This document shows, piece after piece, positions 595 through 8,526 of a stretch of 29,076 nucleotides of DNA. Origin of the DNA: a virus; the IMG/VR virus record IMGVR_UViG_3300025712_000025, positions 1 to 29,076 of that record. One strand, written 5' to 3'. Position 1 is the first letter of the stretch; every line of letters begins with the position of its first letter. The notes under the pieces are model-generated. The model was not told where the DNA came from. It was given only the letters and a program-made list of their open reading frames with translations, and did no database searches. A program made the position numbers and the translations under genes.

Positions 595-1971
595 TTAGAG
601 ATCTTTTTTATGCAATTTTATCCAAGGATGGATATATTCATATATCGGTTCATCATTTCCCACGTCATAGATATTCGGGTGTTTCAACAGGGCCCTACGA
701 TAAGGCGACCATTTAATACCCCTACCCCAACCAAGTTCAGATATAATTTGTGCTTTCGACATAACCTTATTAGATTGAATCATTGCGACTATATCTTGTA
801 GCTTTGGAGTGTTACGCATAGTTTTTTGTCGAGATAAGAGATCATTCATATATGAGTTCATTTCGACAATTTTATCTTTATAGATAAGATTTTCCCGAAT
901 ACAGTCCAAGGCCTGTTCTGCTTGTTCATTTCTAAAATCTGGATTATCCAGATAGGTATTCATAAGCATCAAAGCTTCATCATCATTCTTGAAAAAATCA
1001 CCTTTATCGTTGAGTTCGTGATAATATGTATCATCATACATGATGTAGGGCACGCCATTCATCATGCCGTCTGTCATTGCGACTGACCACCCGCCATATT
1101 TTTGTTTCGGTGAAAATCCCATATAACATTTTTTTAATTCATCATAATACCAGCGTTTATCGCCCTTTGTAGTTATAACATAATCTTTGTCAGATTCCGC
1201 CAATAATGGAATCCACACTTTAAAATCTTGTCGTAATTTCCACAGTTTATCACACACAGCAATAAACTGTTTAAAATGTTTATATGTGTCGGGACGGTGA
1301 TTAAAAACAATAATTTTTTCAGGCGATTCATTTATATCTTCTACAATGTCAGAAATATTGACTCCTAGATGTTGGACAGTTAATATTTCATTGAGAGTAG
1401 AAATAGTTTTGGGTCCGACAGTTTCACTTGCTTGTTTAATCACCATATCTTTCTGATGTTGTGTATTTAGATAACAACGATCATATTCCAACAGACCAGT
1501 GATATTTTGTAAAAAACTATCCTTAGGCCAAGCGACAACCTCCTTCAGATCGAACCAGTGACTATAACCAAACACCGGAGGCATATGGTGTGTGATATTA
1601 TACATGGTATTCAGCAACTGATGGGTATGCTCTGGTAAATGTGACATTATAAGGTCAAAGTCGAGTCTTTTGGATAATAGTTTTTTCATCACATCAACAC
1701 GAAAATTACTTCTCATAGTTGGCGGATATGTTTCAAACTCTGTATACCATTGTGTCACGTTCTCAAATTGTAGGGATGGAACAGGACAAGGCAAAATCAT
1801 ATAAAACCACAAATCGCTGCGAATCTCATTCAACAATTTTATTTGGTTTTTGACGACCTGTATATAACTATCCTTTTCCAGATCTCGCTGGAACGTGATA
1901 TTAGGGTAAATTAATACCCTAATAGTTGACTGCAATGTTTTATTAACATTGTCTAGGTCGAATAAGTTCAT
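595..1971 (-). CDS. GT-B-like glycosyltransferase with winged-helix-like C-terminus
   Basis: A 458-residue protein. The second half resembles the donor-binding half of GT-B glycosyltransferases: a strand plus IVFNHRPDTYKHF at 221-233, then FSPKQKYGGWSVAMTDGMM at 286-304 followed by NGVPYI, which matches the family pattern of an acidic or Ser/Thr cluster, an exposed helix and a GVPxI strand. The C-terminal part (about 385-458) is separate; SKAQIISELGWGRGIKW at 405-421 followed by PYRRALLKHPNIYD looks like a helix-turn-helix or winged helix. The start codon follows the stop of the GIY-YIG/ParB gene directly (TAAATG), so the two are probably co-transcribed. It might transfer sugar to modified DNA bases, which the DNA-binding-like tail would suit, or to a surface polymer. 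The sugar donor cannot be read from sequence. Confidence 0.65.
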   Translation of the reverse strand: MNLFDLDNVNKTLQSTIRVLIYPNITFQRDLEKDSYIQVVKNQIKLLNEIRSDLWFYMILPCPVPSLQFENVTQWYTEFETYPPTMRSNFRVDVMKKLLSKRLDFDLIMSHLPEHTHQLLNTMYNITHHMPPVFGYSHWFDLKEVVAWPKDSFLQNITGLLEYDRCYLNTQHQKDMVIKQASETVGPKTISTLNEILTVQHLGVNISDIVEDINESPEKIIVFNHRPDTYKHFKQFIAVCDKLWKLRQDFKVWIPLLAESDKDYVITTKGDKRWYYDELKKCYMGFSPKQKYGGWSVAMTDGMMNGVPYIMYDDTYYHELNDKGDFFKNDDEALMLMNTYLDNPDFRNEQAEQALDCIRENLIYKDKIVEMNSYMNDLLSRQKTMRNTPKLQDIVAMIQSNKVMSKAQIISELGWGRGIKWSPYRRALLKHPNIYDVGNDEPIYEYIHPWIKLHKKDL

Positions 1972-3228
1972 TTATACGACCGGTTCTTCTTCGTTATAAT
2001 TCTTTTTTGAGATATCGTCCATCCACATATCCATCTCAACGAATTCAATATTAATATTAAACCGACTACAAATATTCAACCAGTAGGGTTGGATTTGTGT
2101 TTTCCACTTTTTTGATTGGGATACGGACGGGTGGTGAATAACAATTGAACATCTGTTACAATTTGTAGCAGCCATATGTTCAAGAGGTCTTTCCAGACGA
2201 AAGGCACCAGATGACATGTATACAGAGCACTGGCTAATATGCGGTTGATTTAAAGAATTAACTTTTGATGTCAAACTACGATCATGTGGGCTAGATTTGT
2301 AGTTTATAAACAAACGTCCACTAGAAGCAAGCGCTTCTTCTGTTGCAATAATTTGTTCTGCTTTGGCCAAGATAGTTTTCACCTGACCTTTTGTAAACCC
2401 AAACGCTTTTAGTGCGTTTACATTTGACACTGCTTTGAGAGGAACTTTTTTCGCCGCAGTGGCAAGAACGTATTTTACCGCATCCGATTCATTCATTTCT
2501 TTTTTGGTAATCTTTGCTTTTTTGTTACGCAAGTTACCGATACAACGCAACTCTTCATCTGTAAGTTCACAGTGAACAGCATATGGAATACGAATTACTG
2601 GAATATCTACAGCGTGTTTTGACTTACTAGCAGCGTAAACTGTGTGATTGCCATCGCCGCGGATATCTTCTCCGTTTTCACCACGTCCCTCCCATACTAG
2701 TACGGGAGTACAAAGAGCGGTACATCCTCGTGCATCATCAATTTTCTGTTTGATGGTACGTTGTAATTCTGGGTCATGTTGGAAGCGAACCTGTAGTGCC
2801 GTCATTTCAACATGAAGACTTAGATCTTCAACCGTTGTAGGAAAGACACCCTCATCAATCTGCTGGTCGATAAACTCACATTGACCAACATCTGGTTCTA
2901 TGAATTGAGGAAACCCATTTGATTTGTTATAGTAAAGTGAGTTTTTCCTAGCATCTACTTTTTTCAACATACGATGTTCAGTATTTTGCATTTCAATATA
3001 ATCACCATATTCAAGAACCTCAAATTTCAATTGAGATTTTGAGTTAGAGAATACCTTTTGAAATTCTGAATTTTTCGATGAATGATTATAATCATCGTCC
3101 ACAGCACCTTTGTGGATTCCTATATACACTTTTGGAGCTTTGCCGGGCGTTAAGTTTGTAAACTTATAAAGATACGCCTCATATTGGGCAGGGGGGGTTG
3201 CGATTACTTGTTCTACGATATTTGACAT
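1972..3228 (-). CDS. GIY-YIG nuclease-like domain fused to a ParB-like domain
   Basis: The frame stays open to a TTG at 3246, but that TTG precedes AAAAGGAGA, a strong ribosome binding site for ATG at 3228, which I take as the start (418 residues). Residues 17-105 look like a GIY-YIG domain: YLYKF at 19-23, YIG at 35-37, an EHRMLKK helix near 84-90 and YYNKSNG at 99-105. Residues about 130-250 look like a ParB/sulfiredoxin-type domain: a TPVLVWEGRG strand at 174-183, then GDGNHTVYAA at 191-200 in place of the family's G-x-HR loop, and a helical part after it. The last 110 residues are unrecognised. GIY-YIG proteins cut DNA, and ParB-like folds bind DNA or act as nucleases or CTPases. It could be a homing-like or modification-directed nuclease. 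The catalytic Arg of GIY-YIG is not obvious. Confidence 0.6.
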   Translation of the reverse strand: MSNIVEQVIATPPAQYEAYLYKFTNLTPGKAPKVYIGIHKGAVDDDYNHSSKNSEFQKVFSNSKSQLKFEVLEYGDYIEMQNTEHRMLKKVDARKNSLYYNKSNGFPQFIEPDVGQCEFIDQQIDEGVFPTTVEDLSLHVEMTALQVRFQHDPELQRTIKQKIDDARGCTALCTPVLVWEGRGENGEDIRGDGNHTVYAASKSKHAVDIPVIRIPYAVHCELTDEELRCIGNLRNKKAKITKKEMNESDAVKYVLATAAKKVPLKAVSNVNALKAFGFTKGQVKTILAKAEQIIATEEALASSGRLFINYKSSPHDRSLTSKVNSLNQPHISQCSVYMSSGAFRLERPLEHMAATNCNRCSIVIHHPSVSQSKKWKTQIQPYWLNICSRFNINIEFVEMDMWMDDISKKNYNEEEPVV

Positions 3229-3301
3229 TTCTGTCTCCTTTTTCAAAACATTAGTTTCCTAGAGCATACAAACCACAAGGACAACTAAGTTCGGTTAAGT
3301 G

Positions 3302-3324
3302 AAAGAATCAACCATTGATTCTTT
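3302..3324 (-). other. Perfect 10-bp inverted repeat in the 5' leader of the GIY-YIG/ParB gene
   Basis: The ten bases at 3302-3311 and 3315-3324 are exact reverse complements around a 3-base loop. The repeat begins about five bases after the transcription start expected from the 3336-3365 promoter. No long U-run follows on the minus strand, so a classical terminator is unlikely. A 5' stabilising hairpin or an operator is more likely. Confidence 0.5.
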
Positions 3325-3335
3325 ATCACTATTAC

Positions 3336-3365
3336 ATTATCTCACATATAGTGGCCATTTGTCAA
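3336..3365 (-). promoter_or_regulatory. Sigma70-type promoter for the GIY-YIG/ParB and glycosyltransferase genes
   Basis: Minus-strand TTGACA (3365-3360), an 18-base spacer and GATAAT (3341-3336). The -35 overlaps the stop codon of the cytidylyltransferase gene. It starts a roughly 100-base leader containing the perfect hairpin at 3302-3324. Confidence 0.6.
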
Positions 3366-3766
3366 TAGGGTTTTTCATTTTCTTCAATTCTTTTTCTCAG
3401 TCCAGAAGATGAAAAGGAATGTTGTCTGCTGGTATATTGTACTTCTATTGGCAGATCACTACCTGTAAAATCTCTGTCTCTATAATCTTCGCCGACAAAT
3501 CGAATGTCGATATGTTGAGATTTCAATAAGTCGATTAAACTCTCTTCTGTGTCATATGGAATAATATTATCAATATATTTGACTGCATCGAGTTGTACAA
3601 ATCTTTCATAAACCGATTGTATGGGTTTATTTTTTTCTGGTCGGTCTATGGTAGGGTCAGTCTGCAAGCCGACTATTAAATAGTCGCACCGACTGCGAGA
3701 TTCTTCTAACATGACTATATGCCCGGCATGTAGCAAATCAAATGCGCCGCAAGTAAAACCTATCAT
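3362..3766 (-). CDS. Cytidylyltransferase-family nucleotidyltransferase (TagD-like)
   Basis: A 134-residue protein, the usual size for single-domain glycerol-3-phosphate cytidylyltransferases. The N-terminus reads GFTCGAFDLLHAGH, containing the HxGH nucleotide-binding motif at 13-16. The C-terminal SSSGLRKRI near 120-128 stands where the family has its ISTTxI-type motif. Such enzymes join CTP (sometimes ATP) to a phosphorylated alditol, aminoalcohol or sugar, releasing pyrophosphate. The start overlaps the stop of the DruA-like gene (ATGA), so both are probably translated together. A CDP-activated group could feed the nearby glycosyltransferase or a surface/DNA modification, but the substrate is not evident. 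A FAD-synthetase-like or ADP-transferring relative is the main alternative. Confidence 0.75.
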   Translation of the reverse strand: MIGFTCGAFDLLHAGHIVMLEESRSRCDYLIVGLQTDPTIDRPEKNKPIQSVYERFVQLDAVKYIDNIIPYDTEESLIDLLKSQHIDIRFVGEDYRDRDFTGSDLPIEVQYTSRQHSFSSSGLRKRIEENEKPY

Positions 3767-4887
3767 CGGATAATATCAATCTTATTCATGCTATCCTGAT
3801 TCCATACCTCTAATTCTCTGCGAAGTCTATTCTCTGATACCATTTTTGCATATCGTTTACTAGCCATTTTTTTCCACCATTTTACAATATTTTCCATTTC
3901 AAATCTGTCATAATTAGGTGCTTTTATAAGAGTATCAGTTTTCCCCAACAACACATCTTTAGCATTAGAATAACCATATTCGCCCATATAAAAGCGTTTC
4001 TGTGTAGTTACGTCACCCGCTTCATTCATTTTTTCAACAAATTTTGTATATAACTCTGGATTATTTTGTTTTAAACTTGCTTTGATTACTCCCACTATTT
4101 TTGTTTGAGTTTTGAGTTTTCGACTTGAAGCACCAGCATGTATTAAATCTTCGCCATTATTTCTTTCGACAAACCAATCTCTCATTTCAAAGTAAATATC
4201 TTCTCCAAGCGTCAATAGGAATTTGGACTGCGTATCACCTTTATATCGAAGGTATGGCTTCATGCCGTCATACATTGACGCTCCTTTGATATTTCCATAT
4301 AAACTGGTCGTTTCAAACAAACAGAATTTTGTGTTGTATTTTTCATCCAACATTCTTCGCATATCACTAGAGCAACAAACAGCTGCAAGTAATTTTCCAC
4401 CCAAATAATTAAATCCAAATGGTTGTACTGGAACTATATTAAATCCCATTATGGCACGCTTGTTAAAAATATCCAAATCAGGCACACCTTCCAAATAATC
4501 ATTTCTTGGTTTAGAATTTATCAATGGGCTACCATATCTAGCAAATCCAACAATAGTATTTGTTGTCGTTTCTTTTAGCATAAACTTGAGCGTTTTGCCA
4601 GGATTTTCGTCAGGGCTGAAAGATGCCGTTTTTTCCAATAATGTATTGAACAATTTGAGTTGTTCCTTACCGCTGCATGACACAACTTGAAATTTCATAT
4701 CTTCTGGATGCAAGTCAAAATTCTGGAAAAGGTCATCCTCCATACTAAATCCAAACATAGGGGCGGGAATATTTTTCACTCTTTCAATTTTTCTGGCACG
4801 AAAGTAGTCATCTATCCGTCCAAAATCTTTGAAATAATTCATAAGTTTTTCTGCGGCCCATATAGAATCTGTTTCGTCTAGTATCAT
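3763..4887 (-). CDS. DUF4338 / Druantia DruA-like protein
   Basis: A 374-residue protein. The central region (about 145-200) has the pattern I associate with phage DUF4338 proteins: IVPVQPFGFNYLGGKLLA at 151-168, a helix ending in the DEKY at 181-184, and ETTSLYGN at 192-199. Just before it, TIVGFARYGSPL at 111-122 fits the family's hydrophobic strand. DUF4338 is the domain of DruA in the bacterial Druantia anti-phage system; its biochemical role is not established to my knowledge. The gene has its own TTGACA/TATACT promoter and overlaps the cytidylyltransferase by four bases. No DruE-like helicase is visible, so this is not a complete defence system. It may be a phage anti-restriction, DNA-modifying or inter-phage competition factor. 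The family call rests on remembered motifs. Confidence 0.55.
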   Translation of the reverse strand: MILDETDSIWAAEKLMNYFKDFGRIDDYFRARKIERVKNIPAPMFGFSMEDDLFQNFDLHPEDMKFQVVSCSGKEQLKLFNTLLEKTASFSPDENPGKTLKFMLKETTTNTIVGFARYGSPLINSKPRNDYLEGVPDLDIFNKRAIMGFNIVPVQPFGFNYLGGKLLAAVCCSSDMRRMLDEKYNTKFCLFETTSLYGNIKGASMYDGMKPYLRYKGDTQSKFLLTLGEDIYFEMRDWFVERNNGEDLIHAGASSRKLKTQTKIVGVIKASLKQNNPELYTKFVEKMNEAGDVTTQKRFYMGEYGYSNAKDVLLGKTDTLIKAPNYDRFEMENIVKWWKKMASKRYAKMVSENRLRRELEVWNQDSMNKIDIIR

Positions 4888-4915
4888 TTTATTCTCACAA
4901 TTTCAATAAGTATTA

Positions 4916-4944
4916 AGTATATCACATTTGTCATTCTATGTCAA
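4916..4944 (-). promoter_or_regulatory. Sigma70-type promoter for the DruA-like/cytidylyltransferase pair
   Basis: Minus-strand TTGACA (4944-4939), exactly 17 bases, then TATACT (4921-4916). The -35 is made by the last codons of the upstream methyltransferase gene (ATG TTG ACA TAG). The start codon at 4887 lies about 20-25 bases after the expected transcription start. Confidence 0.7.
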
Positions 4945-5574
4945 CATTTTTCCAATATTCTCTTCATGTATTCTTTCCTGAGATAATTTGAAATATTCCT
5001 CATTGATTTCAGATCCAACATATTTTCTGTCCGTCCTGATAGCAGCCGCTGCGGTTGTGCCAGATCCCATGAAAGGATCATAAACCACATCACCTTCGAC
5101 CGTATAATTCAATACACATTTGATAACTGCATCTATCGCCATGCCATAAGCATATTTTTTATATTTTTCGTTGTCATGTATCCACACATCGGGTTTGAAT
5201 GATTTTTCTAAATTTTGTTTGGTCTTACCCTTACCAAATGTCAAAACATTCGCATAAGTTGGACGCCAGCCATCAATTTTTAAAGTTTTTACCCATATCT
5301 TGTGTGCTTTTAATTGATACCCTATAGATTCCATTGTCGTGACTATGAGACTACTTTTTGATACTATTCCTCCACCAAACTTTCGGTCTGTGACCGAGGC
5401 AGTAATAAGATTTTTTGTAGGATTCATTCTATCAAAGAGCTCTTTTAAAAATTCCTGATATACTTCTGGTTTGGAAGGATCTGTCCCTATCTCCTCAAAG
5501 TCGGGCGGAGAAGTAAATACATAATCATATTTCAAGTCATCTATCACATTTCTATAATCATCATGATAAATCAT
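4936..5574 (-). CDS. DNA methyltransferase, N4-cytosine/N6-adenine type
   Basis: A 212-residue protein with the two hallmark motifs of amino-methyltransferases in the beta-class order, catalytic motif first. VFTSPPDFEE at 19-28 contains the TSPP form of motif IV. YDPFMGSGTTAAAA at 165-178 is SAM-binding motif I, followed by KYVGSEINEEYF with the acidic residue that contacts the SAM ribose. It would methylate the exocyclic amine of cytosine or adenine at a short site. At 212 residues it is compact, with little room for a target-recognition domain between the motifs. It starts within the stop of gp46 (ATGA). There is no matching restriction enzyme, so it is an orphan, probably protecting phage DNA or acting in regulation. 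TSPP occurs in both m4C and m6A enzymes, so the base is undecided. Confidence 0.85.
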   Translation of the reverse strand: MIYHDDYRNVIDDLKYDYVFTSPPDFEEIGTDPSKPEVYQEFLKELFDRMNPTKNLITASVTDRKFGGGIVSKSSLIVTTMESIGYQLKAHKIWVKTLKIDGWRPTYANVLTFGKGKTKQNLEKSFKPDVWIHDNEKYKKYAYGMAIDAVIKCVLNYTVEGDVVYDPFMGSGTTAAAAIRTDRKYVGSEINEEYFKLSQERIHEENIGKMLT

Positions 5575-7290: not shown

Positions 7291-8526
7291 TTAGGCCTTT
7301 TTCATAATATGGAAATTTTCAAGTAAACCCTTGCGTTTCTCAGAAGCACCTTCTGCGGCAGAAAACCCACCCCAAGAAATATTTACTAATTTATCGTATT
7401 TAAAATATTCACAAGCAATTCTCTTCATGTCATCGCTGATTGGTGTTTTTTTACCGGCGGGCCCGTAATCATGCACAATCACAAAACTGAATGTCGCGTC
7501 AGGCTTGAGGCAACGATAACACAATTCTACAGTAGGTCTCCAATATCCGTCCAACCACTGCTCATATGTCTGGAAAGATTCATGTGACTGTTCTCCACCA
7601 GTATATACTTCTAAATCATAATAAGGCGGCGAAAAAAATACAGTGTCAAAATGTTCTGCATATTTCTCACTAAAATTATGTCGGTTGTCTAGTTGTTCAG
7701 ATGGACAACAATAAAACTCTGCCGTTTTAGAATCATCAACGAAAAATCCATTTCTCAAACCTTCACTATATTCATGTAATAATCTTGACTTTTCGACTAC
7801 TTCGGGAATCACATCTATAGCAACCATTTCATCATAACCAGAATTTGCAAGACCAATTACAGGGCTACACCATGACATAACCGGAGATAAAAGTTTCTTG
7901 CCGTCTGGAAATATGTTATTCAAAATCCAACTATATGTATATGGATTGAAAATAGAAGCCCTGTTTGATGTACCGCGCAATATTGCAAAGAAATCGTCAT
8001 ACCTACCTTGTGATATAAATTCTGCAACCTTTGGTGTTAGCAAACAAGAAATATTAAACTTGTTTATTGCCAATCCTGTAAAGGTATCCAACAAAGAACA
8101 TTTTTCTGATGAATTTGATTTTCCAGTATCCCGATATATACCTTTATATGATATATTTCTGAGTAGTCGTCCACTAGTGATTTCTTTGCGGCCGTCTATA
8201 ACATAACCGTTTTCAATTTTGTCACTAGTTCTCTGCACATTGAAACGAAGAAAATTATCCATATCTTTCACAGCAACATGTTTTTCAAACCAAAGTCTCA
8301 TCATATATTCAAAATTTTCAATAAATCCGGTATATAGAGTTTGTGACCAAGAATCAAAATCGGAATGTCTAATATCATCTTCTGATAGTTTGAGGGAGTA
8401 CTCATATAAAGATAGTCTGTCAGCTGTATATGTCTGTTCGGACTCATACCTAAATTCCATTAAAGTTGGTTTGGTATATTCGCCAAAACAATCCACCATA
8501 AATTCATCATAATTATATGTTATCAT
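7291..8526 (-). CDS. DNA methyltransferase-like protein inserted between gp47 and gp46
   Basis: A 411-residue protein. The C-terminal half carries TVFFSPPYYDLEVY at 295-308, a SPPY form of catalytic motif IV of amino-methyltransferases. A strand-loop-helix at 212-250 (LLSPVMSWCSPVIGLA, then MVAIDVIPEVV with an acidic residue at the end of strand 2) fits a SAM-binding site, although it lacks the usual G-x-G loop. DATFSFVIVHDYG near 345-357 would be a later core strand. The N-terminal 200 residues are probably a target-recognition or phage-specific domain. The gene sits exactly between gp47 and gp46, overlapping the gp47 stop by one base (TAATG) and ending one base before gp46. Some marine T4-like phages carry an extra gene here. 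The target base and site are unknown. Confidence 0.75.
   Translation of the reverse strand: MITYNYDEFMVDCFGEYTKPTLMEFRYESEQTYTADRLSLYEYSLKLSEDDIRHSDFDSWSQTLYTGFIENFEYMMRLWFEKHVAVKDMDNFLRFNVQRTSDKIENGYVIDGRKEITSGRLLRNISYKGIYRDTGKSNSSEKCSLLDTFTGLAINKFNISCLLTPKVAEFISQGRYDDFFAILRGTSNRASIFNPYTYSWILNNIFPDGKKLLSPVMSWCSPVIGLANSGYDEMVAIDVIPEVVEKSRLLHEYSEGLRNGFFVDDSKTAEFYCCPSEQLDNRHNFSEKYAEHFDTVFFSPPYYDLEVYTGGEQSHESFQTYEQWLDGYWRPTVELCYRCLKPDATFSFVIVHDYGPAGKKTPISDDMKRIACEYFKYDKLVNISWGGFSAAEGASEKRKGLLENFHIMKKA

What the first reader, a model, noticed from the sequence alone, without database searches (positions are those of the whole stretch)
595..5574. Accessory cluster: methyltransferase, DruA-like, cytidylyltransferase, GIY-YIG/ParB and glycosyltransferase
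Directly after gp46, where T4 relatives usually continue towards replication genes (gp45, gp44), this phage has five non-core genes in three transcription blocks. The mix of DNA methyltransferase, nucleotidyl activation, sugar transfer with a DNA-binding-like tail, and a nuclease/ParB protein could form a pathway that decorates phage DNA or defeats host restriction. The cluster view is inference; each domain call stands alone.
Basis: partly seen in the sequence, partly recalled or inferred. Interest (0 to 1): 0.65.

Follow-up and report, generated by a model that had tools for sequence, protein, structure and literature searches.

The report
Marine phage DNA-decorating gene cassette
Next to its DNA-replication genes this ocean T4-like phage carries a small exchangeable set of genes, shared with hundreds of uncultured marine phage fragments, that most likely attaches an acyl or amino-type group and then a sugar to the phage's own DNA to hide it from bacterial enzymes; the chemistry itself has not been measured.

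Summary
All five genes are real. The DruA-like protein passes Pfam DruA and has a predicted GNAT fold, with phage Mu Mom among its structural neighbours. The glycosyltransferase (GT) is a GT-B/GT4-type enzyme with a positively charged, winged-helix-like tail. The core of the finding is the pair DruA+GT: 37 of 41 informative GT contigs have DruA just upstream, against 3 of 46 polymerase-anchored contigs (p=1.6e-16), often with a 4-nt gene overlap. An unrelated gene, c36, replaces GT and is also paired with DruA (33 of 34 contigs). In most relatives the pair lies between gp43 and MazG/uvsX. T4 keeps gene 42, beta-gt and the GIY-YIG gene segA between gp43 and uvsX, and other relatives carry DNA methyltransferases or a TET-associated GT there. 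No pyrimidine hydroxymethylase or TET was found, so DruA may create the sugar acceptor. The cytidylyltransferase probably feeds a sugar donor. The GIY-YIG gene is exchangeable (homing-like or restriction-like); its ParB part is unconfirmed. The methyltransferase belongs only to the window's own lineage and is not core. A new variant of phage DNA hypermodification, inferred, with no chemical evidence yet.

The parts
595..1971 (-). GT: GT-B/GT4-type glycosyltransferase, core member
   Evidence: AlphaFold pLDDT 88.9; Foldseek PDB top hit 7qsg 1.4e-13, 379 hits at E<=0.001; no homolog in 50,697 phage records by tblastn; 417 relatives in IMG/VR
631..822 (-). GT C-terminal tail, predicted H-H-H-E-E (winged-helix-like), conserved WGRGIKWxPYRRAL
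   Evidence: DSSP of model; net charge +3.3 per 60 aa against about -2 for the body; found only in GT genes; no Pfam HTH match
1972..3228 (-). GIY-YIG-like nuclease, ParB-like part unconfirmed; exchangeable slot gene
   Evidence: weak GIY-YIG support; PF02195 none; dN/dS 0.30-0.57 and lower dS than its neighbours
3336..3365 (-). promoter-like site ahead of the GIY-YIG/GT block
   Evidence: TTGACA-18-GATAAT, 11/12, TG-extended
3362..3766 (-). CyT: HxGH-motif nucleotidyltransferase (TagD/HldE-C type), probable donor supply
   Evidence: Pfam 2.3e-16; nearest solved: ethanolamine-phosphate and glycerol-3-phosphate cytidylyltransferases; invariant H13-x-G15-H16
3763..4887 (-). DruA-like GNAT-fold protein, core member
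   Evidence: Pfam DruA over cutoff; model pLDDT 87; PDB fold hits mostly GNAT acetyltransferases, Mu Mom 8bv8 prob 1.00; dN/dS 0.03
4916..4944 (-). promoter-like site ahead of DruA
   Evidence: TTGACA-17-TATACT, 11/12, TG-extended
4936..5574 (-). MTase1, N4-cytosine/N6-adenine DNA methyltransferase; neighbour, not part of the core
   Evidence: Pfam 5e-20; next to DruA only in the window's own lineage
7291..8526 (-). MTase2-like protein between gp46 and gp47; neighbour
   Evidence: N6_N4_Mtase 2.5e-4, below cutoff; phrog_12517 3e-9

Best explanation
A DNA-hypermodification cassette of marine T4-like phages. Its core is a DruA-like GNAT-fold transferase plus a glycosyltransferase. Proposed order: (1) DruA, on or just after the replication fork, moves an acyl or amino-type arm from a CoA-like donor onto an exocyclic nitrogen of a DNA base (by analogy with Mu Mom; inferred). 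(2) GT, held on DNA by its winged-helix-like tail, adds a sugar to that arm or to the base (inferred). (3) The cytidylyltransferase, where present, makes the activated donor (inferred). The result would hide phage DNA from host nucleases. The GIY-YIG gene in the middle slot is an exchangeable nuclease, either a homing-type passenger or a weapon against DNA without the mark. MTase1 methylates DNA independently. Shown: presence, folds, linkage, position, purifying selection. Not shown: any enzymatic activity or modified base.
For: GT contigs with at least 3.5 kb upstream: 37/41 carry DruA within 4.5 kb, against 3/46 polymerase-anchored contigs, p=1.6e-16; ten of the 41 have an exact 4-nt DruA/GT overlap. 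Independent replicate: c36, which never occurs with GT, has DruA in 33/34 contigs. The pair sits between gp43 and MazG/uvsX in most contigs where both flanks are visible, and also at gp46|peptidase, gp44|gp62 and gp43|gp44. The interval gp43|uvsX holds gene 42, beta-gt and GIY-YIG segA in T4, and in other relatives C5-cytosine, MT-A70 and N6/N4 DNA methyltransferases. TET-associated glycosyltransferase PF20691, over its cutoff, sits inside the same cassettes. DruA has a GNAT fold with Mom among its neighbours; one depositor names a homolog 'methylcarbamoylase mom'. Purifying selection on DruA, CyT and GT. No thymidylate-synthase-type hydroxymethylase and no TET above cutoff, including contigs of 140-148 kb, leaving DruA as candidate maker of the acceptor.
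Against: No base has been measured. Profile comparison of DruA-like with Mom by sequence finds nothing, and Foldseek E-values for GNAT hits are weak (best 1.7e-3; Mom 1.1e-2). The GT's closest solved folds are cellular GT4 enzymes for small molecules or polysaccharides, and CyT groups with TagD/HldE. Cyanophages keep DruA with no GT homolog, so DruA works without it. DruA and GT distances correlate only weakly (Mantel r 0.27). Four of 41 GT contigs lack DruA in the piece seen. The polymerase-anchored control set is a ranked, not random, sample.
Confidence: 0.6

Rival explanations
1. Envelope glycosylation: GT and CyT (teichoic/LPS-type) change the host surface to block superinfection; DruA is unrelated and merely shares an insertion hotspot.
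For: CyT is nearest to TagD/HldE; GT folds like cellular GT4 enzymes; pelagimyophage glycosyltransferases have been read as LPS enzymes (PMC7029224).
Against: The pair sits among replication genes, often with a 4-nt overlap between DruA and GT; TET-associated GT and DNA methyltransferases occupy the same place; the GT tail is positively charged and winged-helix-like.
Confidence: 0.15
2. Hotspot of independent DNA-modifying genes: DruA, GT and MTases each act alone and are neighbours only because this interval accepts modification genes; there is no two-step pathway.
For: DruA alone in cyanophages and next to gp43 in HTVC008M; weak DruA-GT co-divergence; GT swapped independently of DruA between the window and L005 (dS 2.7 against 0.49).
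Against: 37/41 and 33/34 linkage, 4-nt overlaps, and strict alternation of GT and c36 beside DruA.
Confidence: 0.18
3. The middle GIY-YIG gene is a homing-endonuclease-like passenger, not part of the modification pathway (compatible with the best explanation).
For: T4 has GIY-YIG segA between beta-gt and uvsX; lower dS than the flanking GT and CyT against L075 (0.70 against 2.7 or more) and dN/dS 0.30-0.57; many unrelated genes fill the slot, including GmrSD_N+HNH, and 13 of 37 cassettes have none.
Against: It recurs with DruA and with either GT or c36 across many contigs; in jumbo phages Mom-family domains fused to endoDNases are predicted to be modification-restriction pairs (PMC7824862).
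Confidence: 0.5
4. DruA-like protein is a decoy or inhibitor of host Druantia systems, not an enzyme.
For: Pfam and PADLOC DruA similarity.
Against: GNAT fold, 38 invariant positions in 34 sequences, dN/dS 0.03, and replication-operon position.
Confidence: 0.05

Closest known systems
Phage Mu Mom (N6-adenine 'momylation') and jumbo-phage Mom-endonuclease systems (PMC7824862)
   Same: GNAT fold, inferred DNA-modifying role, nuclease genes nearby in some versions
   Different: no detectable sequence relation; paired with a glycosyltransferase and tied to the replication operon
T4 gene 42 / beta-gt / segA interval
   Same: same place between gp43 and uvsX, a DNA glycosyltransferase beside a GIY-YIG gene
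   Different: no pyrimidine hydroxymethylase found in cassette-bearing contigs; GT is a different, GT4-like family
TET-associated glycosyltransferase (TAGT) systems
   Same: TAGT genes (PF20691) occur inside sister cassettes
   Different: no TET above cutoff in the 11 large contigs tested; the window itself has no TAGT
RB69-type DNA arabinosylation (PMC6024577, seen as abstract only)
   Same: T4-like phage with DNA glycosylation by a sugar other than glucose
   Different: starts from hydroxymethylcytosine; other details not compared here
Druantia DruA (PF14236)
   Same: the DruA-like protein passes the Pfam cutoff
   Different: no other Druantia gene in the window; phage replication context

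Membership tests
Pfam DruA (PF14236) | score above curated cutoff | tested here: met
   30.8 bits against 27; HTVC008M second copy 65.6 bits
Druantia defence system | helicase DruE and companion genes next to DruA | tested here: not met
   no such genes among the window neighbours scanned; mapped loci have replication genes around it
Mom family | sequence relation to Mu Mom | tested here: not met
   hhalign probability 0.3%; Mom has its own Pfam family PF25680, which the DruA-like protein did not match
Mom family | GNAT fold resembling Mom | tested here: met
   8bv8_B prob 1.00, TM 0.32/0.55, E 1.1e-2
Mom family | N6-carbamoylmethyl-adenine in DNA | not testable with these tools
   needs nucleoside mass spectrometry
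GT-B / GT4 glycosyltransferases | GT-B fold | tested here: met
   7qsg, MshA, BshA, PimA hits down to 1e-13
Phage DNA glycosyltransferases (T4 alpha-GT, beta-GT, TAGT) | same family by sequence or fold | tested here: not met
   no PF20691 in the window; T4 enzymes not among the best 50 fold hits
Phage DNA glycosyltransferases (T4 alpha-GT, beta-GT, TAGT) | DNA base as acceptor | not testable with these tools
   needs an enzyme assay
GIY-YIG nucleases | GIY-YIG domain | tested here: inconclusive
   PF19835 3e-4 in one member, PF01541 14.3 bits in one relative, below cutoff
ParB superfamily | ParB_N domain | tested here: not met
   PF02195 no match in 12 records, positive controls ring
Hydroxymethyl-pyrimidine glycosylation pathway | thymidylate-synthase-type hydroxymethylase or TET | tested here: not met
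   some contigs are fragments

The most novel reading that the evidence does not exclude
A DNA hypermodification route without hydroxymethylated pyrimidines: a DruA/GNAT enzyme builds the acceptor arm on a base and interchangeable, unrelated glycosyltransferases (GT4-like with a winged-helix tail, c36, TAGT) cap it, giving several new hypermodified bases across abundant marine T4-like phages, with an exchangeable nuclease slot.
Probability: 0.4. Interest if true: 0.8.

Novelty: new variant of a known kind. Interest (0 to 1): 0.62.

Why it matters
Marine T4-like phages are very abundant, yet little is known about whether and how their DNA is modified. If right, the T4 gp43-uvsX interval is a general exchange site for DNA-modification modules, and a further, independently recruited family of DNA glycosyltransferases exists beyond T4 alpha/beta-GT and TAGT (which PMC13216743 counts as two origins). 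Cultured phages with parts of it (HTVC008M has two DruA genes and a c36 homolog) make the question directly testable. Modified DNA could also bias marine virome sequencing.

Tried and rejected
Sequence-only searches of solved structures for DruA, GT, c36 and c39 profiles: no match. Mom profile against DruA: no match. ParB Pfam model: no match; profile comparisons among slot families: nothing significant. By eye some slot genes (c39, c72, c74) show ParB-like or PD-(D/E)XK-like motifs; not claimed. c36 as a glycosyltransferase is my reading of its sequence only (A2 against A5 no match; no Pfam). Idea that DruA and GT travel as one unit: not supported (Mantel). Hydroxymethylase/TET route: not found. 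Pfam search of the GT tail: no HTH. The tail fused to other proteins: none. MTase1 as part of the cassette: rejected. KU160654 was fetched under a wrongly recalled accession and ignored.
Full report
WHAT IS THERE. The window is a 29,076-base IMG/VR virus record holding T4-type genes on the minus strand: peptidase, the accessory genes, gp46, gp47, UvsW, head and tail genes. The five genes of the finding are at the stated coordinates and have the stated kinds, with two cautions: the GT is recognised mainly by fold, and 'ParB' is not supported by the Pfam model.

DRUA-LIKE PROTEIN (3763-4887). It passes the Pfam DruA cutoff and matches phrog_19197 over its whole length. Thirty-one phage records hold relatives at roughly 29-51% identity, mostly cyanophages plus Pelagibacter phages. 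In the cyanophages read it lies between gp44 and gp62, in HTVC008M directly behind gp43. Its model (pLDDT 87) hits mostly GNAT acetyltransferases; Mu Mom is rank 14 by E-value (1.1e-2) but has probability 1.00 and the highest TM-scores of the list shown. By sequence it is not a Mom. So: GNAT fold, Mom-like in shape, DruA by family.

GT (595-1971). tblastn finds no relative in 50,697 phage records, but 417 stretches in IMG/VR encode one and three MAG contigs. The model (pLDDT 88.9) is GT-B/GT4-like; full-length look-alikes among viral models include Arthrobacter phage glycosyltransferases. The last ~64 residues are predicted as H-H-H-E-E, carry positive charge unlike the body, occur only on this family and match no Pfam HTH: winged-helix-like, DNA binding inferred.

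LINKAGE. Maps of loci found with DruA, with GT and with the GIY-YIG gene show the same order, DruA - (CyT) - (slot gene) - GT. On the larger GT set, 37 of 41 contigs with enough upstream sequence have DruA within 4.5 kb, ten of them with an exact 4-nt overlap; among 46 informative contigs found through DNA polymerase only three have DruA in the gp43-uvsX interval (Fisher p=1.6e-16). The control set is a ranked list, so the p-value is indicative. A second, independent test came from c36, a gene that stands where GT is missing: 33 of 34 contigs have DruA and none has GT. TET-associated glycosyltransferase genes, scored over the Pfam cutoff in seven contigs, sit in the same cassettes.

POSITION. 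Where both flanks are visible the pair is mostly between gp43 and MazG/uvsX, but also gp46|peptidase (the window's lineage), gp44|gp62 and gp43|gp44. T4 has gene 42, beta-gt and the GIY-YIG gene segA in the gp43-uvsX interval. Relatives without DruA have C5-cytosine methyltransferases there (E 6e-42 to 4e-55), an MT-A70 methyltransferase, an N6/N4 methyltransferase (just under its cutoff) with a PLP enzyme, and a hydroxylase-GNAT fusion. The interval is therefore a site for DNA-modification genes, which is the strongest argument that GT acts on DNA rather than on the envelope.

ACCEPTOR AND DONOR. No thymidylate-synthase-type hydroxymethylase was found in 15 plus 9 contigs and no TET above cutoff in 11, among them records of 140-148 kb. 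Fragments limit this, but the usual hydroxymethyl acceptor is not in sight, so DruA is the best candidate to make it. CyT keeps the HxGH motif and is nearest to glycerol-3-phosphate and ethanolamine-phosphate cytidylyltransferases, a generic donor-making enzyme also found in many other phages.

SLOT GENE AND SELECTION. Against close relatives DruA, CyT, GT, MTase1 and MTase2 show dN/dS of 0.12 or less. The GIY-YIG gene shows 0.30-0.57 and, against L075, a much lower dS (0.70) than GT (saturated) or CyT (2.7), that is, more recent exchange. Between the window and L005, DruA and CyT are nearly identical while the slot gene is replaced and GT has diverged (75% identity). This fits homing-type exchange with co-conversion, or matched swapping of a nuclease and a GT; both stay open. 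Other slot genes include a GmrSD_N+HNH protein.

OTHER PARTS. MTase1 overlaps gp46 and lies next to DruA only in the window's lineage, so it is a neighbour. MTase2 (7291-8526) is a further candidate methyltransferase.

KNOWN OR NEW. Phage DNA hypermodification, Mom-type enzymes, TAGT and T4 glucosylation are known. PMC7824862 describes Mom-endonuclease systems in jumbo phages; PMC13216743 concludes that cellular GTs were recruited for phage DNA at least twice. I found no description of a DruA+GT cassette in the papers searched, which cover open-licence papers only. HTVC008M, a cultured phage, carries c36 and a second DruA between gp46 and the peptidase, so a direct test is possible.

VERDICT. 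Real, widespread and coherent; DNA hypermodification is the best reading (0.6), with the exact chemistry open.

Noticed in passing
window 7291-8526 (-): A second DNA methyltransferase-like gene between gp46 and gp47, with FFSPPYYDLE motif but a degenerate motif I; no full-length relative in phage records.
   Followed up: partly
L016:2231-3586 and about 20 other loci (cluster c17): RimK-type ATP-grasp plus Zn-protease protein just upstream of gp43 in many cassette-bearing contigs; could supply or ligate an amino-acid arm.
   Followed up: partly
L226:3385-4371, L202:5824-7916: After gp43: a ~420-aa gene followed by a fusion of Asp/Asn-hydroxylase and GNAT domains (L226), and an N6/N4 methyltransferase followed by a PLP enzyme (L202); look like further modification modules.
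   Followed up: no
L279:6049-8756 (Pelagibacter phage HTVC008M 84548-87255): gp46, c36 homolog, JmjC/cupin protein and a second DruA gene in a row; cultured phage suitable for testing.
   Followed up: partly
L033:4421-7717, L036: Cassette with c36, an unnamed 213-aa gene, a methyltransferase and TAGT instead of GT.
   Followed up: partly
L198:388-1767: GT homolog (44%) at the end of an 87.8-kb contig binned as a Gemmatimonadales MAG with runs of N; bacterial-looking neighbours, possibly chimeric.
   Followed up: no
L003:4344-5718: GT reading frame split in two by a frameshift in this close relative; sequencing error or decay not resolved.
   Followed up: no
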